From Pseudomonas sp. DC1.2 (lineage in GTDB: Bacteria > Pseudomonadota > Gammaproteobacteria > Pseudomonadales > Pseudomonadaceae), in assembly GCF_034351645.1 (NCBI RefSeq), contig NZ_CP133782.1:2547001-2611000 (forward strand): 64,000 nt of DNA, read 5' to 3'. This document shows, piece after piece, positions 3 to 12,109 of the stretch (position 1 is the stretch's first letter; every line of letters starts with the position of its first letter). The notes beneath the pieces were generated by a model. That model was not told the DNA's origin and did not search any database. It saw only the letters and a program-made list of their open reading frames with translations. The position numbers and the translations under genes were made by a program.

Positions 3-194
3 CGTTTGTGTGAGGTGCTCGGGGCGTTTTCTCCACCGGGAATGCCCATGACGGCGCTGTACCCTCCCCACCGCCAGTTATCCCGACGCGTGCGTGTATT
101 TGTCGACTGGTTGGTCGAACTCTGCGGGCAGCCGGCGCACTATTTCTACCGCAGCGACTTAAGGGCGCAAGTGGCTGGCGCCGCCGCCAACTAA
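3..194 (+). CDS. LysR-type regulator, C-terminal end only
   Basis: Only the last 63 codons of a gene entering from the left edge are present. The segment around TALYPPHRQLSRRVRVFVDW is the usual closing part of a LysR effector domain, where an R-x-LS-x-RVR-x-FVDWL helix ends the protein. The DNA-binding domain lies outside the window. Its last 36 bases overlap the end of the convergent acyltransferase gene. The position at the end of the LuxE/LuxC-like operon makes it a possible regulator of that operon, but this is context only. Confidence 0.75.
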   Translation, partial: RLCEVLGAFSPPGMPMTALYPPHRQLSRRVRVFVDWLVELCGQPAHYFYRSDLRAQVAGAAAN

Positions 195-1103
195 CGGCGC
201 TGTCGCGAACGTCAGATTGTCTTGCAACTGTTGCATATGCGCACAGTGCAAGTTGAGCGGGCGCGCCTGGGCGCCGCGATGAAACAGGGCGAACCAGTGA
301 ACCTGGCCAGGGGCCGGAATCACCCCGGTGAAGGTGAACCCTTTGGCGCTCATCGCGTGCAAGTCCCTGGCAAAGCCTCTGGACAATGTCAGCCTTACCG
401 AAATAAGCCAATCCTCGGGCAGTTGAATCAACTGCTGGAGGAAATCCAGGGTCAGGCGCCCGATGATGACATCGACCCTTTTGTGATGCTGCTTCATCTG
501 CAGCGACGGTATCGGGCCCCACGGGGCTTCCCTGGTGGTGCCGAACACCGAACACAAGTGCCGCATGAATGCCCGACAGCTTCGCGGCCACGCCACGTCA
601 GGAAGCGGACGGGTGTACCCATTGCGCAGATGGACGCCGATCACGATGCTTTCCGCCCAGGGTTCAGCGAAAGGCGAAGGTACATAGTCCGGTAATAGCC
701 CGGTGCAATGGAATCCGAGACTCTCTGCCATGCGCTGGGTGTAAGGGTGTTGGGTCACTTGCTTGATCAGGAGTTGCCGCGCCGCAGGCGCAGCCTGTTC
801 GATGAGTTCGTGACCCAGCCGAGTGGCGATCCCTTGTCCCTGGCTGTCGTGATGTACCACGCTGAGGGCCAGTTCCGCGTGCTCGGGGTGGAGCGTATGC
901 CGACAGAGCGCGGCATGCCCAACGACACGGGAGCCGTCTACGGCCAGCATCGATTGCCAGCGCCCGTCGCTGTTGTGCTGCGTGATCAGCGCGGGCAGGT
1001 AAACATCTGGCAGCACGTAGTGGTCACCGTAGACCTGACGGAACAGGCTACTGACGGTCTTGGCATCGCTGGCTTTGAAGGGCCGAAACAGCAACGTGCT
1101 CAT
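159..1103 (-). CDS. GNAT-family acyltransferase, last gene of the LuxE/LuxC-like operon
   Basis: A 314-residue protein starting at MSTLLFRPF; its ATG overlaps the TGA of the upstream ligase gene (ATGA), which argues for this start and for translational coupling. The N-terminal half is a recognisable GNAT fold: a substrate-binding start, then the acetyl-CoA loop GQGIATRLG near residue 90 and a YTQRMAESLGF-type helix. The C-terminal half (about residues 160-314) is less typical and may be a degenerate second GNAT unit. GNAT enzymes move an acyl group from acyl-CoA to an amine or hydroxyl. Here it may finish or tailor the product of the pathway. Substrate unknown. Confidence 0.8.
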   Translation of the reverse strand: MSTLLFRPFKASDAKTVSSLFRQVYGDHYVLPDVYLPALITQHNSDGRWQSMLAVDGSRVVGHAALCRHTLHPEHAELALSVVHHDSQGQGIATRLGHELIEQAAPAARQLLIKQVTQHPYTQRMAESLGFHCTGLLPDYVPSPFAEPWAESIVIGVHLRNGYTRPLPDVAWPRSCRAFMRHLCSVFGTTREAPWGPIPSLQMKQHHKRVDVIIGRLTLDFLQQLIQLPEDWLISVRLTLSRGFARDLHAMSAKGFTFTGVIPAPGQVHWFALFHRGAQARPLNLHCAHMQQLQDNLTFATAPLVGGGASHLRP

Positions 1104-2473
1104 CGCTTGGGTTCCGCCGATGTGGCATAGGTGCGCAAGTCCAGAACACGCAGTTGCTTGCCTGAGCGAGGGTGCAGGGTGAGGTCGGTGACGGAGCATG
1201 GCATGACCCGAAAGTCCAGCAGGCCATCGCGTGTCTGTTGGTCTATCTGCGGATAGAGATCCAGCAGCGCTTGATACAGCGCGAGGTTTAGCCGATCAAT
1301 GTCCGTGGTCCCCGGTTCCGGCACCCAATAGATGCTTAACCGGTCCTTGTGGCGGGGGTGTTCGATGAGTAATTGCCATTGATCGCTGTTGCCTAGACGC
1401 TTGATCGTGTCCTGTATGTCTTCGGTCAGCAACGACATGACGCCCACGCGCACGCGCTGACTGTGGAGGCTTCGCCCTCTGAGGGCGAACTTGCGTCTGG
1501 GCGTATTGGCTGGCTCGACCCAGCAGGCGCGGTCTCCTACGGGGTAACGCACTATTGGCATCAGCCGGCGACCCAGATTGGTCACCACCAACCGCCCGAC
1601 ACGATTGCACTCTTCGATAATTTCACCGCTGTGTTCATCGATGATTTCCAGCACGGTGTGTTGGTCAAACGCGCGATGTTCGCCCAAGGCCGCTTCGCGG
1701 TCGCTGCTGCCAATCAGCCCTGCGTCCACGCTGGCGTAACCAATTGAGGCAACACGGGCATTTGGGAACACGTGGGCGAGCACCGCCAGTTGCCCTGCAA
1801 AGAGACTTTCACCACCGTAGAGCACGCTGTCGACCTCGCTCAACACGCGGTTCTGTTGAGTCAGGTAAGCCGCGAACTTCAGTAGCTGTGCCGGCACGCC
1901 GGCCAGCACATTGATTCGATGATCGCCAATGGCGGCTGCCAACCCCTGAAAGTCAACATGACCGGTGAAGGGAAATTCGCTGATCGAGACGGTGGCGTGA
2001 GCCAGTGCGTCGTGGATGAATAAAAAGCTGGCATAGAGATCGCCGGCAAAGAACAGATTGGCTATCCGGTCCCCCTTGTTCAGTTGGCAGGACAGGCTTT
2101 CACCGAACGCACTGACGAGCGCCTGCCATTCTTCGTGAGTGTAAACCGCCAGTTTGATAACCCCGGTCGAACCGCCGGTTTTAAATACCACTGCGTCTTC
2201 AACGGGTGCAGTCAACACGGGCCAATGTGCCAAGTTATGACTGGCTGACCAATAATGACCTACATCGATCAACGGAAGATCGCTTAACGTTAGGTTCTCG
2301 CGAGGGACATCTTTAAAGTGTTCGTTATAAAAGGGTGAGTGTTCACGTATGTAATGCACCAGTTGCTCAAGCGTAGAGAGTCGTTTCAATGGAGTTCCCT
2401 TCCAGTAATCGGATATTTCGAAATGAGTTGTTAGTGGAAAAATAAACCGATTATTTTTGTGTTCGTCGTTCAA
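1100..2473 (-). CDS. PaaK-like (phenylacetate-CoA ligase/CoF synthetase family) adenylate-forming enzyme
   Basis: A 457-residue protein of the PaaK branch of adenylate-forming enzymes. The nucleotide loop is KTGGSTG at residues 98-104; later landmarks are YGGES, the YASVDAG segment and RYPVGD near residue 310. Members activate a carboxylate as acyl-AMP and often pass it to CoA. The start is an unusual TTG, 23 bases inside the end of the preceding fusion gene, because no ATG occurs early in the frame; the exact start is uncertain. It is homologous to the C-terminal domain of the upstream LuxC fusion, so the operon carries two PaaK-like modules plus LuxE. Confidence 0.85.
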   Translation of the reverse strand: MNDEHKNNRFIFPLTTHFEISDYWKGTPLKRLSTLEQLVHYIREHSPFYNEHFKDVPRENLTLSDLPLIDVGHYWSASHNLAHWPVLTAPVEDAVVFKTGGSTGVIKLAVYTHEEWQALVSAFGESLSCQLNKGDRIANLFFAGDLYASFLFIHDALAHATVSISEFPFTGHVDFQGLAAAIGDHRINVLAGVPAQLLKFAAYLTQQNRVLSEVDSVLYGGESLFAGQLAVLAHVFPNARVASIGYASVDAGLIGSSDREAALGEHRAFDQHTVLEIIDEHSGEIIEECNRVGRLVVTNLGRRLMPIVRYPVGDRACWVEPANTPRRKFALRGRSLHSQRVRVGVMSLLTEDIQDTIKRLGNSDQWQLLIEHPRHKDRLSIYWVPEPGTTDIDRLNLALYQALLDLYPQIDQQTRDGLLDFRVMPCSVTDLTLHPRSGKQLRVLDLRTYATSAEPKR

Positions 2474-4859
2474 TAACTAAAGGCACTTTCCCGCTGTGTT
2501 TGTTTCGCTCGAATTGACTGACCGGGCAGGGAATAACTTCAAGTATTAAAAGTTCAGCAGACACCGCCGCTGCCACAGTGGTATCGGCCAGCAATCGGTC
2601 GAGAATCAATTGAGCGTTCGCTTCGGCGCGAACTGACATTCGCTCAACGCCGTCGGGTGCATGGTCCAGCACTATCTGAATGTGTACGCCTGAGCAGTGC
2701 ATTAATTGCGTAGGTGAGATGAACTCGGTGCCAATACGCAGCCATTGACCGTGACGCGCCAGTAATTCGAACCGTGGCGTGCTGAGCCCACACGGGCATG
2801 GTCCTGACACCCAGCGCCCCGTGTCACCCACTTCGTAGCGCAGAACGCTCTGGTTTTGACGCGCTCGGGACGTAAACAGCAGGCGCCCGACGTCTGTGCC
2901 TTGCACCGGTACGTCCTGTTCCAGTTCGACTATTTCCAGGTGCTGGGTGTCGCACATCAAGTGGAATACACCGTCGGGTGTCGCTGCGCAGGCATGCCCC
3001 AAAGGGCCCGCGTCGACGGAGCCATACATTGCCGAGCGGATCGTCGACACGCCGCAACTTTCCATTAACTGCCGACTGGCCAGCCCAAGGTGCTCACCTC
3101 CCAGGAACACTTTGCGGATACCGGCATACGCGCGCAGGGTTGTCTGTTCTTTAAGAAAAAGACGGTGCAGCGTGCTCGGCATGCCGATCAGCACGCAGAC
3201 TTGCTGCTCGACGATTAGCCGGGCTATTTCGCTGAAGTCGTCGTCCGTGGGCGCGCCCATGGGTAAATGGGGGGCGTCGAGGAGTTGCAGAATCCAGGAA
3301 AAGCTGAAAAAGCCGCCGTACAGGTTTCCGCCATGAAACAGGTTCATCACACGGTCGCGTGACGGGTCCAGCCCGGCGGCGAACAACCCGTCAGCGGCGG
3401 CGCGCATTTGCCGTTGAAAGTCACGGTAGCTGAAGCCGGACAAGGCCGGAGTGCCGCTACTGCCCCCGGAACGGAAGTAAAGTTGCGTCGTTTTTTCGAT
3501 GGGCTGGGCGTGGAACGCGGCTTTGTCCATGATGGCCAGGTGCGTCGTGTCCGGCACTGGAGGCAACGCATCCAGGGTGGCCTGCGCGCTCAAGACGTCT
3601 GGCGGCAGACTCACCGAGATGCGACGACTCAGACGAGTCAGCGCGTAAACACCATCGTGAGGTTCGCCCGCGTAGCCTTCATGGATCGCCGAGACCGGCG
3701 TAATACGCGTAACACCTGCATTGATGAGCGCCCGCACCAGCGTCGGTGTCTGGTCTTGCGCGCAAATCAAGGCGCAACTTTGCAGGACGGTACGCCAAGG
3801 TAAGAGGGTTTCGGCCATCAGTTGCTGCGGCACGGGTTTGAGTATTAGGGTTCTAAACAGCGGTGCGGGCGCTAGGGTGCGATGGTGTTCCCAGATCACC
3901 CGCCAGCCGGCGCCGGTCCAGACTTCACCGATGTGCCCGGAAAAACACTGATGCAGTTGCGCGATGGCACGGTGGGTGGTGATTTCCGAGGCCTCCTGCA
4001 ACGTCGGAATCAGTGCTGGCCAGTGTGCTGCGCGGCGGCTGAACGCTTGAGCCAGACGCGCACCCAAGTCGCGCAGAACCGCTGGGTCGTCGCTGTTTAC
4101 CAACACCCATTGAGGGCTGGAGCACGCCTGCTGATCGAGGCGGCAGACTTCATCCACCAGCGCATCGAGTGCGCAGGGTTGCGCGGCATCAGGACAAAGA
4201 TAGGCAAAGCTGATTCGATGCCCCCAATCGATCCAGCGACACCCGGCCGGCAGTTGTTGACGAATGGCTTTCAGTGCCGTTTCGCCTCCCCAGGCGGCCA
4301 CGGCATCAGCGCGGGTGCAGAGGCGTGCGACGTGGGAGGTTGGCACGGGCAGCACCGCGATGTACTCCTTTAGCCGGTTGCTGTCGTCGCACTGGCCCAG
4401 GGCCGCGAGCAATCGAGCTGTCAGCCCCGTGTCGCTGGAACTCGGGCGTAGCCAGTTGATGTTGCCGGCCAGCAGGCTTTCCAGCACTGCGCAAAACGCC
4501 AGCATCGGCGCATTACCCGGAGTGATGTGGACCACCAGCCCCAGCGGGTGCCAGCTTTCGAAACGCGCTTGCCGATAATCGATACGCCTCAGTGAATGAG
4601 GTTGCACGCCCAGTTCACGCTCGATTTTGCTGTGCAGATTATCGGACTGACAGAAGTCGATCAGTGCCAGACGTTGTTCGTCGTCCAGTTCAAGGTCCAG
4701 TTCTCGGCTCTGCAACCGATGGGCAAAGCGAGCTGCCGAGTCGACCACTATGGGTGTGTCTAGAGGCTTTGCCAGCAGTCGTGGCAATGCCTTGTGCAGG
4801 TTGTCCAGGGCTGTATCGAGGAGAAAGTCGGCATGCAATTGGCCGTTGATCAGGTACAT
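2451..4859 (-). CDS. LuxC-like acyl-CoA reductase fused to a PaaK-like adenylation domain
   Basis: An 802-residue two-domain protein. Residues 1 to about 425 read as LuxC: PGNAP at 114-118 and a Cys at 246 in QQACSSPQ, where the LuxC catalytic cysteine lies. LuxC reduces an acyl thioester to an aldehyde with NADPH. Residues about 455-795 are a PaaK-like domain: nucleotide loop SGGSSGTP at 464-471, YGSVDAG at 612-618 and RYEVGD further on. Such LuxC-ligase fusions are known only loosely to me and I cannot name a product. The ATG lies one base after the TGA of the LuxE-like gene. An acid could be activated and then reduced by this single polypeptide. Confidence 0.88.
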   Translation of the reverse strand: MYLINGQLHADFLLDTALDNLHKALPRLLAKPLDTPIVVDSAARFAHRLQSRELDLELDDEQRLALIDFCQSDNLHSKIERELGVQPHSLRRIDYRQARFESWHPLGLVVHITPGNAPMLAFCAVLESLLAGNINWLRPSSSDTGLTARLLAALGQCDDSNRLKEYIAVLPVPTSHVARLCTRADAVAAWGGETALKAIRQQLPAGCRWIDWGHRISFAYLCPDAAQPCALDALVDEVCRLDQQACSSPQWVLVNSDDPAVLRDLGARLAQAFSRRAAHWPALIPTLQEASEITTHRAIAQLHQCFSGHIGEVWTGAGWRVIWEHHRTLAPAPLFRTLILKPVPQQLMAETLLPWRTVLQSCALICAQDQTPTLVRALINAGVTRITPVSAIHEGYAGEPHDGVYALTRLSRRISVSLPPDVLSAQATLDALPPVPDTTHLAIMDKAAFHAQPIEKTTQLYFRSGGSSGTPALSGFSYRDFQRQMRAAADGLFAAGLDPSRDRVMNLFHGGNLYGGFFSFSWILQLLDAPHLPMGAPTDDDFSEIARLIVEQQVCVLIGMPSTLHRLFLKEQTTLRAYAGIRKVFLGGEHLGLASRQLMESCGVSTIRSAMYGSVDAGPLGHACAATPDGVFHLMCDTQHLEIVELEQDVPVQGTDVGRLLFTSRARQNQSVLRYEVGDTGRWVSGPCPCGLSTPRFELLARHGQWLRIGTEFISPTQLMHCSGVHIQIVLDHAPDGVERMSVRAEANAQLILDRLLADTTVAAAVSAELLILEVIPCPVSQFERNKHSGKVPLVIERRTQK

Positions 4860-4860
4860 A

Positions 4861-5991
4861 TCAGGTCCTCCCGATCAGTTCGGCGGCAGCCATTGCACAA
4901 CTGCGGTTGGTGCTGGTGCCGGCTCTTCCCTGTAACTGGAACCAGTCAGTGGTCACGCCACAACCGCATGCACTGCCCGGCTGCAAGGTCGCCAAGTCAC
5001 TCATGACCACGGCGTGGGCCGGGCTCGACGAAATATAGGGTGAGACGAATTCCAACAAGCCGCTTTGGCCGTAGGGCAGGACGCTGAAGTCGGATGGATT
5101 GCGCACGAATACCTTCGAGTAAACCGGCACATGAAAATGATGATGAGCGCATTCGATATAGGGCACCGCGTGTTCTACCGCGCCGTAGCCGTCTCGGCAG
5201 CGGGCCGGCTCGATCCCCAGTTGTCGCCCGACTCGGTCATAGAGCCGAGCCCGTGGAATCTCCTGTGCGGCCTGGTTTTTCCAGCCGCCTCCTAAAAATA
5301 ACAATGACCCGGCAGGCAGTTTTAGTGCTGCGACGCCGGTCGCCTCCATGTGTTGCAACACCTGCCAAAGCAGTGCCGGAAAACCGAAAATGCGCACTGG
5401 AAGAGCGTCTTCGGCAAACGCTTGCAAGGCGCGAATGACCCCGAATACGTCGAATTCGTGACCGTCGCCGGTGCGGCGCAGGGCGTAGGCGATGTGATTG
5501 GCCGGCGCGTATCGACACAGAAACTGGTCGGTGTAAGACGTGCCCAGGTGATTGTCCGCATCGGGTTCATAGCTCAGCAGCAAGTAGTTGCAGGGGCTGT
5601 CCGGTGTGTTCCAGCCGTACTGCTCAAAAATCCGGCTGACCATGCTCTGGGCGGCGTCCATGGTGCGTTTGTCGAAACGCATGCGACTCTGTTGGCCGCT
5701 GGTGCCCGAGGACGTCAGCTCCAACGCGTCTTCGCCGGTGGTGCTGAGCAGCAACTGTTGTTTGAAAAAATTAGCGAATATAGGGGGTAGCCACGCCCAG
5801 TCGTCGATGTCATTCAGCTGGTTGGCATCCAGACCGTGTCTGTTCAGCCAGCGCTCGTAGCCAGGGGTATGTTGACAATGAAACAGGCAGATTTCAGCCA
5901 TGGCTCGATCGAACAGGCCCGCGGGCACGGACGCTAAGTCATAAGGGTGCGCCAGGGCACACAGGGCGTCGGTATGGGGCAGGGAAATCAT
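4861..5991 (-). CDS. LuxE-like acyl-protein synthetase/acyl-adenylating enzyme
   Basis: A 376-residue protein of the LuxE family. The nucleotide loop SSGTSG is at residues 94-99. Near the C-terminus a GCG pair and a GRAG..SCA segment match the end of LuxE proteins, where the acyl-accepting cysteine sits. In bioluminescence LuxE activates a fatty acid and hands it to LuxC for reduction; no luciferase genes are present here, so the aldehyde must serve another purpose. The start MISLPH is chosen because AAAGGAC lies seven bases upstream; the open frame continues further but those residues are antisense to the MFS gene. Confidence 0.87.
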   Translation of the reverse strand: MISLPHTDALCALAHPYDLASVPAGLFDRAMAEICLFHCQHTPGYERWLNRHGLDANQLNDIDDWAWLPPIFANFFKQQLLLSTTGEDALELTSSGTSGQQSRMRFDKRTMDAAQSMVSRIFEQYGWNTPDSPCNYLLLSYEPDADNHLGTSYTDQFLCRYAPANHIAYALRRTGDGHEFDVFGVIRALQAFAEDALPVRIFGFPALLWQVLQHMEATGVAALKLPAGSLLFLGGGWKNQAAQEIPRARLYDRVGRQLGIEPARCRDGYGAVEHAVPYIECAHHHFHVPVYSKVFVRNPSDFSVLPYGQSGLLEFVSPYISSSPAHAVVMSDLATLQPGSACGCGVTTDWFQLQGRAGTSTNRSCAMAAAELIGRT

Positions 5992-6020
5992 AAAAAGTCC
6001 TTTTCTAATCAGTCGGTAAT

Positions 6021-7250
6021 CTAGTTGCAGTGGCTTCGCAGGAAACGTTGCAACGGCACCAGGCTTACAAGCCCAGATACTGCTGCGATCAGCGCGAATG
6101 ACTGAAGGCTGTTCCCGGCGCCCAGCGCGGCGATCATCGACCCCGCGCCGCCCATGATTGCGATTGAAATCATGCCGATCATGGCCGACACCAACCCCAT
6201 GCTGTCTTTGCTGGAGAACAGCGCCAAGCGATACAGCGCGGCATTGCTCATGCCCATGCCGATGGCGTAGATCGACAGGCATCCGACGAGCCAGGCCGTT
6301 GAGGTGCCGAAGAAGCCGGCGATTAATAGTGCGACGAGCCCGCAGCAAAATGGCCAGAGTGCGTAGCGGATCAGTTGAGGCAGAGGGGTCTTTGCAATCA
6401 GTCGGCCGAGCACCAGATTGCCGAGGATGACCCCGCTGAATACCGGGATTTGCCATAGCCCGTAGTGCATAGGCGTCATGCCCTGGCCGTGGATCAGCAA
6501 GATGGGCGCCAAGCTGATCCAGGCAATCAGCGGTAATCCCATCAGACCTAAAGCGATGGAGGAAAGCACAAACCCACGGTTGCACAACAACCTGCCGTAG
6601 CGGCGCAAAGTCCCGCGCCAGTGGAACGGCTCGAGAGTCGTTGGTTGGCGGTCGCGCCTTGAGGCACCCGCGGTTTCTGGCATGAACCAAAATAGCCCGA
6701 CCCAGACTGCCAGAGCGGCAACACCCAACAGCACAAACAGCTCCCGCCACGAAATCCAGGTCAGTAACACGCTGCCCAGCAACGGACCCAACAGCGGAGA
6801 TAGGAGTGCGATGTTCCCCAGCACAGCCATGATCCTGACCGCGTCGGCTTCGCAGAAAACCTCTTGCAGGGCGGGATAGCTGACGGCGATAACAAAACCA
6901 AGGCCCATGCCCTGAATCAGTCGCAGACTATTAAAGGCCTTAATACTTTGCACCGAATAGGCGGCAATGCAGGCGAGTGCAAACAGGGCACAACCGATCA
7001 GCATTAAAGGGCGGCGCCCATATTGATCGGACAGCGGGCCGACTAACCATTGCAGAAGAACACCGCCAATCAAGTAAAGTGTAAACGCATAAGGAATATG
7101 ACTCGGACTGGCCTCTAGTTGCTCGGTCACGGTCAACATCGCGGGCATTATCAAGTCGCTGGCCATGTAGGTCAGTAGTTCGAAAATAGCGATGGCCAAA
7201 CAGAATCCTATCCCTTGAGCGGGACGAATATTTGTTAATGTTTTTTGCAT
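6021..7250 (-). CDS. MFS drug/proton antiporter of the DHA1 (MdfA/Bcr-like) type, first gene of the operon
   Basis: A 409-residue inner-membrane protein with about twelve hydrophobic segments. The hallmark GPLSDQYGRRPLML loop between helices 2 and 3 and the SYPALQEVF motif C-like region around helix 5 place it in the 12-helix drug exporter group. The intact acidic residue in helix 1 (IFELLTYMASD) resembles MdfA. It leads the operon and ends 29 bases before the LuxE-like gene, so it most likely exports the product of the pathway or protects the cell from it. No clear ribosome-binding site precedes the ATG. Confidence 0.87.
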   Translation of the reverse strand: MQKTLTNIRPAQGIGFCLAIAIFELLTYMASDLIMPAMLTVTEQLEASPSHIPYAFTLYLIGGVLLQWLVGPLSDQYGRRPLMLIGCALFALACIAAYSVQSIKAFNSLRLIQGMGLGFVIAVSYPALQEVFCEADAVRIMAVLGNIALLSPLLGPLLGSVLLTWISWRELFVLLGVAALAVWVGLFWFMPETAGASRRDRQPTTLEPFHWRGTLRRYGRLLCNRGFVLSSIALGLMGLPLIAWISLAPILLIHGQGMTPMHYGLWQIPVFSGVILGNLVLGRLIAKTPLPQLIRYALWPFCCGLVALLIAGFFGTSTAWLVGCLSIYAIGMGMSNAALYRLALFSSKDSMGLVSAMIGMISIAIMGGAGSMIAALGAGNSLQSFALIAAVSGLVSLVPLQRFLRSHCN

Positions 7251-7446
7251 AATAGTGGTGTCGGTATTCTAAGTTTTAGAAGAGGTGGTTTTAGTGCGGC
7301 GATAGTAGTCACGAATAAATGATTACTCCAGTCGCTAATTGCTACTGGGTGTTTTGATGGGCGTGCGCACGGTGTTTGCTGTTGTCGTTACAAAAAACGG
7401 CGAGTAGTTCTGGTCGGTAGTTAAAGTAAAAAATATTATAAAAAAA
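7251..7446 (-). promoter_or_regulatory. Upstream region of the MFS-LuxE-LuxC operon
   Basis: This stretch between the exporter gene and the next terminator is clearly richer in A and T than its surroundings and must hold the operon promoter. It includes the palindrome GTGCGCAC at 7363-7370. I could not identify a convincing -35/-10 pair or a clear LysR T-N11-A site by eye. Confidence 0.4.
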
Positions 7447-7466
7447 TGCCCGCTTCATAGCGGGCA
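7447..7466 (-). terminator. Rho-independent terminator of the small lipoprotein gene
   Basis: Perfect 8-bp stem TGCCCGCT/AGCGGGCA with loop TCAT. Read on the minus strand it is followed by a run of seven T. It lies 55 bases after the stop of the 45-residue lipoprotein gene, and A/T-rich flanks on both sides could let it work in both directions. Confidence 0.8.
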
Positions 7467-7521
7467 ATTTTTAAAAATTTTATTAAAGAGTGTCGCGGTT
7501 AGAGTACGTCAGTCGCGTGAA

Positions 7522-7659
7522 TTAACGGTGTTCGTAATATCCGGGTCCGCCATGATCGTAGTGGTGGTCACCGTGCCAGCCCCCGTGGGGGAAAATGATA
7601 CAACCGCTCAGGGCTAGAACAGCAATCAGGGGGATGAGCAGCATAATGCGACGGAACAT
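7522..7659 (-). CDS. Small His-rich lipoprotein (45 aa)
   Basis: A 45-residue reading frame with GAGGA eight bases before the ATG and a terminator after it. The start MFRRIMLLIPLIAVLALSGC is a lipoprotein signal with lipobox L-S-G-C, so the mature protein is about 26 residues anchored by a lipid. The mature part (CIIFPHGGWHGDHHYDHG and onward) holds six His plus several Gly, Tyr and Asp, which suggests metal binding, though this is inference. Expression signals on both sides support a real gene. I know no characterised relative. Confidence 0.75.
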   Translation of the reverse strand: MFRRIMLLIPLIAVLALSGCIIFPHGGWHGDHHYDHGGPGYYEHR

Positions 7660-7815
7660 TTAAAAATCCTCATGGTTAGCGCCGCCATGAAGCTAAAACT
7701 CTTCAGCGGCTGTAACATGAGACCCCGTTTGTTGCCCCTCATCCCCGTTTAAAGGTACAGGCTTGGCATGCAGGCGGATACACATCGGATACATTTAAAG
7801 GCTCAGGAATTCGCA

Positions 7816-8004
7816 ATGACCCAGTCGCAACGTTTGAAATACTCGATTCTGATCGCCCTGTTGGTATTGGGGACGATGCTCGGCCTTTCCTATCTGCAAA
7901 ATGCAGGGATCATCAGCGAGAAGCTGTTCCAGTACATCGCTATTGGGGTGGCAGTGGTCGTGGTGGTCATCAATGGTGTGATGCGGCGCAAGGTCAAGCC
8001 TTAA
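7816..8004 (+). CDS. Small two-helix inner-membrane protein
   Basis: A 62-residue protein starting at MTQSQRLK, chosen because AGGA lies seven bases upstream. It has two hydrophobic segments, about residues 9-26 (ILIALLVLGTMLGLSYL) and 38-55 (YIAIGVAVVVVVINGV), and a positively charged C-terminus (MRRKVKP). This fits a small bitopic or hairpin inner-membrane protein with both ends in the cytoplasm. A strong terminator hairpin follows at 8040. Function unknown. Confidence 0.7.
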   Translation: MTQSQRLKYSILIALLVLGTMLGLSYLQNAGIISEKLFQYIAIGVAVVVVVINGVMRRKVKP

Positions 8005-8398
8005 GCGATGCCCCCGTAGCGAGTTCGCAGCAAAGGATCGCTACAGCCTGTGGATGCAGGCTGTAGCTTTTATCCGGGTTTAGCGTGATAACGCCCTCAC
8101 TGCACAAGCGCTTCAAGACTTCGCGCACGCTCAAAAAAGACAGTGGAATATCCAGCTCCAGCAGATGGCTGTGTACGCCGCGCACCCCCAGACTGCGCTC
8201 GCTTAGTGACGCACTCAGTAAGGCGTCGATAACTTTCAGGCGAATGAGACTGGTGCGCAGGCCAAAGCTCTTGAGCAACAGTCTGATTCGTTCGTTGCCA
8301 TTGCGCTCGGTCGGTCGATCGAAAGCGTCGCCTCCGGCACTCATTGAAACGCTCTTTGGCGCATGACTACCGTCCGTTGGCAGTTGCGAGTTGTACAT
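7994..8398 (-). CDS. Fur-like winged-helix regulator lacking the metal-binding domain
   Basis: A 134-residue protein starting at MYNSQLPTD, where AAGGAG lies seven bases upstream. Residues about 43-115 (LKSFGLRTSLIRLKVIDALL, then GVRGVHSHL and SVREVLKRL) match the helix arrangement of the Fur DNA-binding domain. The His-rich metal and dimer domain that follows in true Fur or Zur proteins is absent, and the protein ends with a short tail rich in Ala and Cys. It is divergent from pvdQ, so a role in iron-related control is possible. Its last codons overlap the convergent membrane-protein gene by 11 bases and contain that gene's terminator. Confidence 0.65.
   Translation of the reverse strand: MYNSQLPTDGSHAPKSVSMSAGGDAFDRPTERNGNERIRLLLKSFGLRTSLIRLKVIDALLSASLSERSLGVRGVHSHLLELDIPLSFLSVREVLKRLCSEGVITLNPDKSYSLHPQAVAILCCELATGASLKA
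8040..8071 (+). terminator. Terminator of the small membrane-protein gene, inside the convergent regulator gene
   Basis: A perfect 11-bp stem GCTACAGCCTG/CAGGCTGTAGC with a 6-base loop, followed by TTTTA on the plus strand. It lies 35 bases after the stop of the 62-residue membrane protein and inside the 3' coding part of the minus-strand Fur-like gene. Confidence 0.75.
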
Positions 8399-8556
8399 GC
8401 AAAAACTCCTTTTCATACCCTGATCATGAAAATGGGGTGGGTGCTCTCAAACAATAAGACGTATGAGCCAAGACGATCATGAAGGCTCTGATGTAGAAAA
8501 TTTGTCGCTATCTCGTCAGCGCCCCGTGAGTCGGGCCTGATGGCGTTGCCGTGCAG

Positions 8557-8583: not shown

Positions 8584-8710
8584 CCTAAGGCCAGGCACAT
8601 TGCGCGTAACGCGCAGGCTGCGATTTTCCCAGGCTGGGTCCGATGCGACTGCGTTGCCATCAAAACCTGCGCCCATCCTGGTTTCAGTCTTTTTAGGATC
8701 AGGAGCGAGT

Positions 8711-11059
8711 GTGATTAATTACAGGCAGTTGACCAGGCTAAGTTTTTTGGGCATGTGGGTAGGCCTGAACCTTGCCGGATGTAGCCTCCGTCAGTCGGAT
8801 CAGGCGTCCATCGATATACGTCGCACCAGTTTCGGCGTGCCGCACATTCTTGCGCACGACGAGCGTGGGCTCGGTTACGGTATCGGCTATGCGTATGCTC
8901 AAGACAACCTGTGCCTGTTGGCCAATGAGGTCGTCACCGTCAATGGCGAACGTTCACGGTATTTTGGTCCGGATCAACTGACCGTTGAGCAGCGCGCAAA
9001 CCTGACCAGTGACCTGTTTTTCAATTGGTTGAATACCCCGCAGGCGGTTAACGGTTTCTGGCAGGCGCAAACCCCTGAGGTGCGTGACCTGATCGATGGT
9101 TATGTTGCGGGTTATAACCGCTCGCTGGCAGAGCGTCGCGCCCAAGGTTTACCACAGCAGTGTCAGGGGGATTGGGTGCGGGCATTGACTGCCCAGGACG
9201 TCGTGAAACTGACGCGTCGCCTGTTAGTTGAGGGTGGGGTGGGCCAGTTTGCCGAAGCCTTGGCCGGCGCCCAGCCTCCTAAAGTCGTGACCCAGGAGGC
9301 GGGCGCTATGGCACCGTCCTTCCAGGTCGCCGCGGAGCGGATGCAGCGGTTTGCGCTGGACCGTGGCAGCAATGCAGTAGCAATCGGCAGTGACCGCTCG
9401 TTCAACGGTCGCGGCATGTTACTGGCCAACCCGCATTTTCCGTGGGTGGGCGGTATGCGCTTCTATCAAATGCACCTAACCATCCCCGGCAAGCTGGACG
9501 TGATGGGGGCGGCACTGCCGGGTCTGCCGATGATCAACATCGGCTTCAACCAACACGTGGCCTGGACCCACACGGTTGACACGTCCAAGCATTTCACCTT
9601 GTATCGCCTGCAACTCGATCCCAAGGATTCGACGCGCTATTTGCTGGATGGAAAGTCTCTGCCGCTGGACAAGCAAACTCTGACGGTGGACGTGAAACAA
9701 CCGGATGGCCAGATCAGGTCGGTTTCCCACGTGGTTTTCAGCTCACAGTTCGGTCCGATCGTGCAGTGGCCCGGCAAACTGGATTGGGACACTCATTACG
9801 CCTACAGCCTGCGCGATGCCAATCTGGAAAACGACCGCGTTCTACAGCAGTGGTACGCCATGAACCGAGCCGAGAGCCTCAAAGACTTGCAGTCCTCGGT
9901 GCAGCGAATTCAGGGCATACCGTGGGTCAACACCTTGGCGGCGGATGACCAGGGCCAGACGCTTTACATGAACCTGTCGGTGGTGCCGAACGTCAATGCC
10001 GACAAGCTAGCCAAATGCAGCGATCCGCGCGCCGGGTTGCAAATGATCGTCCTGGACGGTTCCAACAGTGCCTGCGCCTGGGACATTGACCCGGATGCGG
10101 CGCAACCGGGTATTTATGCGGCCAACCACCTACCGCAACTGTTGCGCAAAGACTTTGTGCAGCACTCCAACGATTCGGCGTGGTTGGCCAATCCGGCGCA
10201 ACCGTTGACCGGTTTTTCGCCATTGATCAGTCAGGACGCTCAGCCGCTAGGACTGCGCTCGCGCTTTGCTCTGGAACGCTTGGGAGCGCTGGCCAAGGTT
10301 GGTCCGGTGGCGGCGCTTGATTTGCAGCAAATGGTGATGGACGACGAGGTGTATCAGGCATCCCAAGTCATGCCAGACCTGCTGCAATGGTGCAGCACGA
10401 ACCTGGGCTCTGACACGGCGGCTCTGACCTCGCTGTGTGCCAGTTTCAAGGCTTGGGATCGTAAGGCGAATCTAGACAGTGGTCTGGGCTTTGTGCATTT
10501 TCAGAACGTTATGCAGTCGTTGGCGCGGCCCCCCGATATCTGGCGGGTGGTGTTTGACGCCAAGGACCCGCAGCATACGCCGCGCGGTTTGGCTATTCAG
10601 CGCCCGGACGTCGCGAACGCTATTCGCGAAGCGATGCTGGCGTCGGTGGAGAAGGTCAGCAAGATGGGGCTTAAGGCTGACAGCCGTTGGGGCGACATTC
10701 AGGTGGTCAGCAGTGGTAACCAACAGACGCCGATCCACGGTGGACCGGGCGGGCTAGGGATTTACAACGCCATTCAAGGCGTTCCAAGAGCTGACGGCAA
10801 ACTCGAAGTGGTCAGCGGCACCAGCTATCTTCAGGTGGTGACCTTCGATGAGACAGGTCCGCATGCTCAGGCTGTGTTGGCGTTTTCTCTGTCGAGTGAT
10901 CCGACGTCGAAATACGCCCTGGACCAGACCTTGGCATTTTCCAGGAAGCAGTTGAGCGTGTTGCCGTTTACCGAGCAGCAGATCAAAGCGGATCCGCAGT
11001 ACCAGCTGCAGACTCTTCGCGAGTCCGATGATAAAACGGGCCGGGTGCTGGCTCAGTAA
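8711..11059 (+). CDS. pvdQ: PvdQ, acyl-homoserine lactone/pyoverdine precursor acylase
   Basis: A 782-residue Ntn-hydrolase precursor. The GTG start follows AGGAG by five bases. PvdQ removes the fatty-acyl chain from the pyoverdine precursor in the periplasm and also cleaves long-chain acyl-homoserine lactones. The sequence follows P. aeruginosa PvdQ closely (RGLGYGIGYAYA, LTRRLLVEGGVGQFA, LLANPHFPW, RDFVQNSNDSAWL-like). The autoprocessing site is G219-Ser220 in DRGSNAVAIG, close to Ser217 of that enzyme; Ser220 begins the beta chain. The signal region ends in LAGC at 21-24, which looks like a lipobox rather than a plain Sec site. A weak hairpin at 11090-11110 may terminate it. Confidence 0.93.
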   Translation: MINYRQLTRLSFLGMWVGLNLAGCSLRQSDQASIDIRRTSFGVPHILAHDERGLGYGIGYAYAQDNLCLLANEVVTVNGERSRYFGPDQLTVEQRANLTSDLFFNWLNTPQAVNGFWQAQTPEVRDLIDGYVAGYNRSLAERRAQGLPQQCQGDWVRALTAQDVVKLTRRLLVEGGVGQFAEALAGAQPPKVVTQEAGAMAPSFQVAAERMQRFALDRGSNAVAIGSDRSFNGRGMLLANPHFPWVGGMRFYQMHLTIPGKLDVMGAALPGLPMINIGFNQHVAWTHTVDTSKHFTLYRLQLDPKDSTRYLLDGKSLPLDKQTLTVDVKQPDGQIRSVSHVVFSSQFGPIVQWPGKLDWDTHYAYSLRDANLENDRVLQQWYAMNRAESLKDLQSSVQRIQGIPWVNTLAADDQGQTLYMNLSVVPNVNADKLAKCSDPRAGLQMIVLDGSNSACAWDIDPDAAQPGIYAANHLPQLLRKDFVQHSNDSAWLANPAQPLTGFSPLISQDAQPLGLRSRFALERLGALAKVGPVAALDLQQMVMDDEVYQASQVMPDLLQWCSTNLGSDTAALTSLCASFKAWDRKANLDSGLGFVHFQNVMQSLARPPDIWRVVFDAKDPQHTPRGLAIQRPDVANAIREAMLASVEKVSKMGLKADSRWGDIQVVSSGNQQTPIHGGPGGLGIYNAIQGVPRADGKLEVVSGTSYLQVVTFDETGPHAQAVLAFSLSSDPTSKYALDQTLAFSRKQLSVLPFTEQQIKADPQYQLQTLRESDDKTGRVLAQ

Positions 11060-11113: not shown

Positions 11114-12109
11114 TCAGCTTTTTGGTGCCTGCGGGAGCGAATTGAGTACGGGGTTGCCGTCCTGGTTACGGGTCAGGTAGACCGGTAATACGCGCGGTAG
11201 GGACGCCACCAGGTCATTTATCTCCGTAATGTTGTAGATGCCGCCGATGCGTATTGATGCGGCGCTGCTGTCGGCCAGCATCAGCGGTTTGCTGAGGTAG
11301 CGATTGATCAGGGGCAGTGCATCGCTCAGCGGCAGGTCATTAAGTATCAGCTTGCCATTGCGCCAGGCCAGAGCCGTGTCACTGGCGTAGGTCTGAGTGA
11401 CCCGGGGCGAGGCGTCACCGTGCCGATAGCGGGCCTGCATTAAAGGCCCAAGACGTAAACCGTCCGTTGCAACGACATCATTGCTACTGACCAGAACCGA
11501 ACCTTCAATCAGATTAACGCGCACCTGATCTTCATACATCCAGACATTGAAGGTGGTCCCGGTCACCCGAATCCGGCCTTCGCCCGCTTTGACAATGAAG
11601 GGATGCGTGATGTCGTGACTGACGCGGAAGAAGGCCTCACCTTTTTTCAACGTGACCCGACGTTCATCCTTGTAATTACTGAAGGTCAATTCGCTATCCA
11701 GATTCAGCTCCACCTGACTGCCGTCGCTCAGTGTGACTTGACGGACATTGTCGGTGGCCTGGACGTGCTGGTACGCGTTGGGCAACCATCCCAGGTTCCA
11801 GCCGGTATAAGCCGCCAGAGGCAATGCCAGGACGCAGGCGGCGCTAATGCCGAATCGACGCCGAGGCATTGACGGCGTGACCGCCAGCACTGGAGTGGTG
11901 GATTCAGTTCGCGGCAAATCACCAGCGACATCCCAAATCTCCAGCATCGCCTCATACTCGAAAGCATGCAGCGGGTGCGCATCGCGCCATTGCTCAAAAG
12001 CCTGGCGCTCCTGCGCAGTGCAATCACTGGCGTGCAAACGCATGCACCAGTGCGCGGCGGCATCGGTGATAGTGTCGTATTCCACGTCCGAGAGGGTGTG
12101 TTCGGTCAT
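11114..12109 (-). CDS. FecR-family anti-sigma factor/sensor without an adjacent sigma gene
   Basis: A 331-residue single-pass membrane protein. It has a cytoplasmic DUF4880-like start with AAAHWCMRLH and FEQWRDAHPLHAFEY, a membrane segment near residues 87-107, and a periplasmic FecR domain (LSDGSQVELNLDSELTF, GEAFFRVSHD, ITGTTFNV-like). Such proteins hold an ECF sigma factor inactive until a TonB receptor signals siderophore uptake. No sigma factor or receptor gene is beside it. It is convergent with pvdQ; in P. aeruginosa fpvI and fpvR lie near pvdQ, so an FpvR role is a reasonable guess, not shown. A GATGA-type site precedes the ATG. Confidence 0.85.
   Translation of the reverse strand: MTEHTLSDVEYDTITDAAAHWCMRLHASDCTAQERQAFEQWRDAHPLHAFEYEAMLEIWDVAGDLPRTESTTPVLAVTPSMPRRRFGISAACVLALPLAAYTGWNLGWLPNAYQHVQATDNVRQVTLSDGSQVELNLDSELTFSNYKDERRVTLKKGEAFFRVSHDITHPFIVKAGEGRIRVTGTTFNVWMYEDQVRVNLIEGSVLVSSNDVVATDGLRLGPLMQARYRHGDASPRVTQTYASDTALAWRNGKLILNDLPLSDALPLINRYLSKPLMLADSSAASIRIGGIYNITEINDLVASLPRVLPVYLTRNQDGNPVLNSLPQAPKS

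What the first reader, a model, noticed from the sequence alone, without database searches (positions are those of the whole stretch)
159..7250. Uncharacterised MFS-LuxE-LuxC/PaaK-PaaK-GNAT operon: candidate new biosynthetic pathway
Five tightly packed minus-strand genes (overlaps or gaps of 1-29 bases) combine a LuxE-like acid-activating enzyme, a LuxC-like reductase, two PaaK-like ligase modules, a GNAT acyltransferase and an exporter, without luciferase genes. Together they could activate an acid, reduce it to an aldehyde, ligate or transfer a second acyl group and export the product. I know of no characterised Pseudomonas cluster with this order.
Basis: partly seen in the sequence, partly recalled or inferred. 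Interest (0 to 1): 0.85.

Follow-up and report, generated by a model that had tools for sequence, protein, structure and literature searches.

The report
Leupeptin-type protease-inhibitor operon in Pseudomonas
Five neighbouring Pseudomonas genes match, one for one and in the same order, the known Klebsiella genes that make leupeptin, a small peptide aldehyde that blocks proteases, so this looks like a further member of a known pathway and not a new one.

Summary
In detail: window 159-7250 holds five packed minus-strand genes, in transcription order MFS exporter, LuxE, LuxC-PaaK fusion, second PaaK, GNAT. In all 80 loci kept by a search with the fusion (80 of 129 found) the last four keep that order; in 70 the exporter comes first. 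'Uncharacterised' is wrong. Both published PCR primers for the leupeptin genes of Klebsiella michiganensis match exactly in one held genome, 1,235 bp apart as published. Its operon is transporter, LuxE, LuxC/PaaK, PaaK, GNAT, at 48, 61, 52, 50 and 37% identity to the window's proteins. Passages read say this cluster makes leupeptin and that the Xenorhabdus route uses separate AMP-dependent ligases and a reductase. The tested catalytic motifs are intact. Best reading: an N-acetylated short peptide aldehyde is built without carrier proteins and exported. Which product Pseudomonas makes is untested; one residue in a conserved motif of the second ligase is fixed differently in this clade. The fusion occurs in 75 of 398 sampled Pseudomonas genomes.

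The parts
6021..7250 (-). MFS exporter, MdfA/Bcr-like (first gene of the operon)
   Evidence: Pfam MFS_1 4e-37; NCBIfam MdfA family 1.5e-97, below its cut-off; 48% identical to the transporter gene in front of Klebsiella leupA
4861..5991 (-). LuxE-type acid-activating enzyme, homologue of leupA
   Evidence: Pfam LuxE 5e-28; 61% identical to the Klebsiella gene; solved relative 7xc6_E, LuxE, 3.8e-11
4897..4899 (-). Cys365 codon of LuxE, in the C-terminal R-S-C-A motif; by recall the acyl-accepting cysteine of LuxE enzymes
   Evidence: motif in 85 of 86 LuxE proteins (window + 85 loci; the miss, L075, is a shortened ORF); alignment A1
2451..4859 (-). LuxC-type reductase fused to a PaaK-type AMP ligase, homologue of leupB
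   Evidence: Pfam LuxC 4e-105 on residues 63-413; solved PaaK-type enzymes match the second half; 52% identical to the Klebsiella gene
4122..4124 (-). Cys246 codon, in the QQACSS motif of the LuxC reductase (catalytic cysteine, by recall)
   Evidence: motif in 86 of 86 proteins; aligns with DQQACFS of the solved LuxC 7xc6_A
3453..3470 (-). SGGSSG nucleotide-binding (A3) motif of the fused PaaK ligase
   Evidence: 84 of 86 proteins fit the pattern, the other two differ by one residue; alignment A2
2487..2495 (-). SGK (A10) motif with the adenylation lysine of the fused PaaK ligase
   Evidence: 85 of 86 proteins; the miss reads SAK, so the lysine is kept
1100..2473 (-). stand-alone PaaK-type AMP ligase, homologue of leupC
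   Evidence: Pfam AMP-binding 7e-9; 50% identical to the Klebsiella gene
1736..1738 (-). Tyr246 codon of the second ligase (SIGYASVDAG motif): Cys in 17 of 17 reference proteins from other genera, Tyr in 61 of 61 Pseudomonas proteins (window included)
   Evidence: alignment A3
159..1103 (-). GNAT N-acyltransferase with a C-terminal extension, homologue of leupD

Best explanation
This is a leup-type operon: a carrier-free pathway for an N-acetylated short peptide aldehyde of the leupeptin kind (acetyl-Leu-Leu-argininal or a variant of it), with its exporter. Proposed mechanism: GNAT acetylates the first amino acid. The two PaaK-type ligases activate acids as AMP esters and form the two amide bonds. 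LuxE activates the carboxylate of the last residue, or of the finished peptide, loads it on its C-terminal cysteine and passes it to the LuxC cysteine. LuxC reduces the thioester to the aldehyde, and the MFS pump exports the product. SHOWN: gene set, order, homology to the published leupeptin genes, intact catalytic motifs, conservation. INFERRED: which enzyme does which step, and that the Pseudomonas product is a leupeptin or variant.
For: (1) Exact matches to the published primers leupA_f and leupB_r in genome G1171, 1,235 bp apart as published; the published leup span, laid on that genome from leupA_f, runs from LuxE to GNAT, and a transporter gene precedes it. (2) Gene-for-gene homology and identical order, 48/61/52/50/37% identity. 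(3) Passages: the leup cluster makes leupeptin, a lysine analogue and derived pyrazinones in Klebsiella, and Xenorhabdus and Photorhabdus leup operons also give a homoarginine pyrazinone (PMC11480411); leupeptin comes from separate AMP-dependent ligases and a reductase in Xenorhabdus bovienii (PMC11212599). (4) LuxE homologues occur in X. bovienii and Photorhabdus. (5) Catalytic motifs are intact. (6) No carrier or condensation domain was listed for the five proteins. (7) The GNAT domain model fits an N-acetyltransferase.
Against: No metabolite data exist for this strain. The primary paper (Li et al. 2020) is not held, so enzyme-by-enzyme roles are not taken from it. GNAT is the least conserved gene (37%). 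Some positions that are constant in the reference group differ in this clade, so side chains of the product may differ. The GNAT fold matches include polyamine and other acetyltransferases, so its substrate is not shown.
Confidence: 0.92

Rival explanations
1. A sub-case of the best explanation: same enzyme family but a different product in the Pseudomonas clade, i.e. a peptide aldehyde, or a pyrazinone or alcohol from it, with other residues or another N-acyl group than leupeptin.
For: The stand-alone ligase has Tyr246 in 61 of 61 Pseudomonas proteins against Cys in 17 of 17 references, and 24 of 193, 42 of 317 and 16 of 139 reference-conserved positions differ in the window's LuxE, LuxC/PaaK and PaaK. 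GNAT is only 37% identical to the Klebsiella one. Known operons already vary (Arg, Lys, homoarginine).
Against: 169 of 193, 275 of 317 and 123 of 139 reference-conserved positions are kept in the window. The two Streptomyces-group relatives also carry Tyr at that position, so it does not by itself mark a Pseudomonas product.
Confidence: 0.4
2. A fatty-aldehyde or bioluminescence-type reductase system, or a flagellin or surface-glycan modification set, both of which use LuxE and LuxC.
For: LuxE and LuxC homology; LuxE, LuxC and a fatty acid CoA ligase or AMP-dependent synthetase occur in flagellin glycosylation islands (PMC4875605 and PMC7874193, passages).
Against: Only weak similarity to the solved LuxE/LuxC pair 7xc6 (4e-11 and 1.6e-8) against 61% and 52% identity to the leup genes. 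None of the five proteins is a luciferase, glycosyltransferase, acyl carrier protein or pse enzyme; two of the three neighbours scanned are a penicillin-amidase-type acylase and FecR, the third has no match.
Confidence: 0.02
3. A decayed or silent copy that makes nothing in this strain.
For: No sigma-70-like promoter was found by the simple scan in 7200-8000 (0 found, 0.9 expected by chance). The Klebsiella operon is silent in typical laboratory culture (PMC11480411).
Against: All five frames are open and the tested catalytic motifs are intact; the operon is kept in many species.
Confidence: 0.05

Closest known systems
Leupeptin gene cluster (transporter + leupABCD) of Klebsiella michiganensis; also reported for Xenorhabdus and Photorhabdus (Li et al. 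2020, not held; passages of PMC8283571, PMC11480411, PMC11212599)
   Same: Same five genes in the same order and strand; every protein homologous (37-61% identity); a conserved insertion site is reported in Klebsiella too.
   Different: Other host genus; product not known; clade-specific substitutions, e.g. Cys to Tyr at position 246 of the stand-alone ligase.
LuxE-LuxC fatty acid reductase of luminous bacteria (PDB 7xc6)
   Same: LuxE and LuxC homology and the LuxC cysteine motif.
   Different: No luciferase gene in the operon, very distant sequence, LuxC fused to a PaaK ligase, second ligase and GNAT present.
NRPS-made peptide aldehydes of Streptomyces (antipain, MAPI, NRPS leupeptin)
   Same: The kind of product expected: short peptide aldehyde protease inhibitors (PMC10548850 and PMC11212599, passages).
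   Different: No NRPS condensation or carrier domain listed here.
LuxE/LuxC/ligase genes of flagellin glycosylation islands
   Same: LuxE, LuxC and an AMP-dependent ligase occur together.
   Different: No pse, glycosyltransferase or acyl carrier gene in the operon; no LuxC-PaaK fusion is mentioned in the passages read.

Membership tests
Leupeptin (leup) operon | Gene set and order: transporter, LuxE, LuxC/PaaK, PaaK, GNAT | tested here: met
   Window order equals that of the primer-identified Klebsiella operon L145.
Leupeptin (leup) operon | Each protein homologous to its leup counterpart | tested here: met
   tblastn 48, 61, 52, 50 and 37% identity.
Leupeptin (leup) operon | The comparison operon is the published leup operon | tested here: met
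Leupeptin (leup) operon | Catalytic motifs of both ligases, LuxC and LuxE | tested here: met
   Alignments A1-A3 and motif census.
Leupeptin (leup) operon | Makes leupeptin or a close analogue | not testable with these tools
   Needs metabolite analysis.
Lux fatty acid reductase / bioluminescence | Luciferase genes luxAB with luxCDE | tested here: not met
   None of the five operon proteins is a luciferase; the rest of the genome was not searched for luxAB.
NRPS peptide-aldehyde cluster | Carrier and condensation domains | tested here: not met
   No such Pfam or NCBIfam domain listed for the five proteins; the only NRPS-type hit is a weak amino-acid adenylation model on the second ligase (2e-4, far below cut-off).
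Flagellin glycosylation island | Pse or glycosyltransferase genes with luxE and luxC | tested here: not met
   None among the five operon proteins or the three neighbouring genes scanned; the rest of the window was not scanned.

The most novel reading that the evidence does not exclude
A large Pseudomonas clade, with members named P. syringae, P. viridiflava and P. brassicacearum, makes its own variant peptide aldehydes by a carrier-free LuxE/LuxC/PaaK route with altered ligase specificity, and uses them as exported inhibitors of host or competitor proteases or as pyrazinone signals.
Probability: 0.35. Interest if true: 0.55.

Novelty: new member of a known kind. Interest (0 to 1): 0.33.

Why it matters
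It gives a function-level name to an operon whose central gene occurs in 75 of 398 sampled Pseudomonas genomes and whose genes databases label piecemeal as acyl-protein synthase, acyl-CoA reductase or phenylacetate-CoA ligase. If the product is a leupeptin, many pseudomonads may export a serine and cysteine protease inhibitor. The spread of divergent operons is a natural set for learning how carrier-free ligases choose their amino acids.

Tried and rejected
Early keyword searches listed flagellin islands, lux reporters, a tropolone paper and many off-topic papers; judged by titles and abstract starts (lists were capped at 20 of 25 and 20 of 3,444), none is about this operon. The leupeptin idea came from recall of the abstract of Li et al. 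2020.

A false alarm: the published leupA_f primer translates to MKIAIHN in its first frame, which fits no LuxE start seen and made me doubt the identification. In the matching genome the primer lies inside the LuxE gene in another frame, so the objection fell. Before that, the primer gave no true match in 392 family genomes (two genomes with one 2-mismatch hit each) or in two other genera (0 of 6 and 0 of 7 genomes), and no locus of L034 and L096-L137 matched either primer within 4 mismatches except one chance-level match in L116.

The neighbouring acylase, FecR and 140-aa genes were considered as pathway partners and rejected. Of the 30 acylase loci fetched (86 of 119 genomes had a match), 6 come from genomes without the operon and all 6 keep FecR, the 140-aa gene and the small membrane gene. 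Of the 24 with the operon, the MFS start was seen within the 1.5 kb flank in 15 and not in 9 (operon presence).

The model of the LuxC/PaaK fusion is too weak to use (mean pLDDT 73.9, pTM 0.43) and was not searched. The C-terminal half of the GNAT model (about 170-300) was barely tested by the fold comparisons; its fold stays unassigned. The scan for defence-system families gave nothing.
Full report
WHAT IS THERE. Searches confirm five packed minus-strand genes at 159-7250. In transcription order they are an MFS exporter (6021-7250), LuxE (4861-5991), a LuxC-PaaK fusion (2451-4859), a second PaaK (1100-2473 from a TTG; homology to most relatives starts about 25-35 residues in, so the true start is uncertain) and a GNAT enzyme (159-1103). 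Pfam and NCBIfam support each name; the AMP-binding match of the fusion's second half is below the Pfam cut-off, but solved PaaK-type enzymes match it. The window lies in a one-contig genome of 5.82 Mb, which holds one copy of the fusion. Its genus is Pseudomonas, judged from named relatives.

IT IS A CONSERVED UNIT. One search found 129 relatives of the fusion in named genomes and kept the best 80. In 80 of 80 the order LuxE, LuxC/PaaK, PaaK, GNAT holds on one strand; in 70 of 80 the MFS gene comes first. The other ten are Xenorhabdus, with no such MFS gene in front (one, L107, has an MFS match downstream; in two Xenorhabdus genomes searched whole the best MFS matches are only 24-25% identical). 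Parachitinimonas, Rugamonas, a Burkholderia and an Enterobacterales bin carry the full set. Counting further records, 73 of the 85 examined (L034-L117 and L145) have the MFS match first; this includes two Salmonella plasmids where it is a remnant of about 121 aa. In two Streptomyces-group plasmids only PaaK, LuxE and the fusion were found by similarity; one of them is annotated PaaK, MFS, GNAT, LuxE, LuxC/PaaK, the other record has no annotation. The fusion occurs in 75 of 398 Pseudomonas genomes at E up to 1e-30, the window's own included, and, with a Xenorhabdus query, in 1 of 369 genomes drawn across the class, the window's own. A LuxE relative occurs in 15 of 392 genomes drawn from the family of Xenorhabdus khoisanae.

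WHAT IT IS. The gene list (N-acetyltransferase, two AMP ligases, acid-activating LuxE, aldehyde-forming LuxC, exporter) suggested leupeptin, acetyl-Leu-Leu-argininal, whose non-NRPS genes I recalled from Li et al. 2020, a paper not held. PMC8283571 (passages) gives the Klebsiella michiganensis cluster as a transporter plus leupABCD, with its span and two PCR primers (product 1,235 bp). I located a genome group with the flanking primer core_f (within 3 mismatches in 4 of 26 genomes, exact in one), then searched the 20 held genomes of that genus: 1 of 20 carries leupA_f exactly. In the fetched region (L145) leupA_f, leupB_r and core_f all match exactly, and the two leup primers lie 1,235 bp apart. 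The genes there are a transporter (48% identical to the window's), LuxE (61%), LuxC/PaaK (52%), PaaK (50%) and GNAT (37%), in that order. The published span, laid on this genome from the leupA_f site and assuming no length change, runs from the start of LuxE to the end of GNAT. This shows that the published leup operon and the window operon are homologous throughout.

WHAT THE LITERATURE SAYS OF IT. PMC11480411 (passages): the leup cluster makes leupeptin, a lysine analogue and pyrazinones in Klebsiella; Xenorhabdus and Photorhabdus operons also give a homoarginine pyrazinone; the Klebsiella operon is silent in typical laboratory culture. PMC11212599 (passages): leupeptin in Xenorhabdus bovienii comes from separate AMP-dependent ligases and a reductase. 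PMC10548850 (passages) contrasts it with NRPS routes. PMC12542766 (passages) shows an antiSMASH table that labels a Photorhabdus region 'Leupeptin'. X. bovienii and Photorhabdus LuxE proteins are among the relatives found here. The ten paper searches listed no paper that, by title and abstract start, treats such an operon in Pseudomonas; they cover open papers only, and the lists were capped at 20.

HOW IT LIKELY WORKS. LuxC Cys246 sits in a QQACSS motif present in 86 of 86 proteins (window and 85 loci) and aligned with that of the solved LuxC. The fused ligase fits SGG(S/T)(S/T)G in 84 of 86, RYxxGD in 86 and SGK in 85; the second ligase fits its counterparts in 80, 80 and 78 of 81 proteins (five loci whose second-ligase ORF was cut short by my ORF rule were dropped). 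A look at the misses shows single-residue variants that keep the A10 lysine (RAGK, SAK). The second ligase lacks CxCG in 81 of 81, the fused one has it in 86 of 86. LuxE fits TSSGT(S/T)G in 81 of 86 (the five misses read TSSGTGG), GYG(A/S)VEH in 83 and R-S-C-A near its end in 85; that this last cysteine carries the acyl group is recalled. The GNAT model (pLDDT 87.7) has an N-terminal domain like GNAT acetyltransferases, among them amino-acid and peptide ones, but polyamine ones also rank high; fold alone does not show the substrate. No carrier or condensation domain was listed. I therefore propose acetylation by GNAT, two ATP-driven couplings by the PaaK modules, LuxE-to-LuxC thioester transfer and reduction to the aldehyde, and export. 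Which ligase makes which bond is not known from this work.

DIVERGENCE. The tree of 86 fusions places the window with four Pseudomonas relatives (support 99), inside a clade of all 66 Pseudomonas rows (100) apart from the enterobacterial, Xenorhabdus and betaproteobacterial ones (quick method, drawn with a midpoint root). That set holds only the near Pseudomonas relatives: six of the 75 genomes match at only 51-56%, and the P. entomophila LuxE is closer to enterobacterial LuxE (68% to a Yersinia one) than the window's is (60%), so Pseudomonas has more than one lineage. Of positions conserved in at least 90% of the references, the window keeps 169 of 193 (LuxE; 28 references, one of them P. entomophila), 275 of 317 (LuxC/PaaK; 17 references of other genera) and 123 of 139 (second ligase; the same 17). 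The second ligase has Cys246 in 17 of 17 references and Tyr in 61 of 61 Pseudomonas proteins; the two Streptomyces-group proteins, left out of that count, also have Tyr. A changed product is possible but not shown.

PLACE IN THE CHROMOSOME. The genes on the upstream side (small membrane protein, 140-aa protein, penicillin-amidase-type acylase, FecR) also stand together in Pseudomonas genomes without the operon (6 of 6 such genomes among the 30 fetched loci), so they look like backbone. With the operon, the MFS gene starts within the 1.5 kb flank in 15 of 24 loci, so the operon often, not always, sits directly beside them. PMC8283571 reports a conserved insertion site in Klebsiella as well.

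VERDICT. Real, well conserved and of known kind: a leupeptin-type operon. The open questions are its product and role in Pseudomonas.

Noticed in passing
L117 2812-12350 (Streptomyces sp. NBC_00158 plasmid): A leup-like gene set in another order (PaaK, MFS, GNAT, LuxE, LuxC/PaaK; fusion 41.6% identical) stands close to three annotated family I36 peptidase-inhibitor genes. It could be a non-NRPS leupeptin-type route in Streptomyces.
   Followed up: partly
L114 5467-11630 and L115 5467-10749 (Salmonella enterica plasmids typed as conjugative): The core leup-type genes lie on plasmids with the MFS gene reduced to a remnant of about 121 aa (annotated 'hypothetical'); in L115 no GNAT gene is listed although similarity is found.
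   Followed up: partly
G281:C4:271730-274082 and G294:C5:69800-72195: Two Pseudomonas genomes match the LuxC/PaaK fusion in two adjoining pieces, so the fusion may be split or frameshifted there.
   Followed up: no
L046 6774-7990 and L075 6871-7911: LuxE matches in two overlapping pieces in L046 and is shortened at its end in L075, so some copies may be damaged or misassembled.
   Followed up: no
window 8600-11059 (+) and 11114-12109 (-): A penicillin-amidase-type acylase and a FecR gene are conserved neighbours in Pseudomonas genomes with or without the operon.
   Followed up: yes
window 7994-8416 (-): A 140-aa protein without a Pfam match (E up to 0.01), found beside the acylase in 27 of 30 Pseudomonas loci.
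   Followed up: partly
window 7447-7466: A terminator-like hairpin with T-rich tails on both strands lies upstream of the MFS gene and could act in both directions.
   Followed up: no
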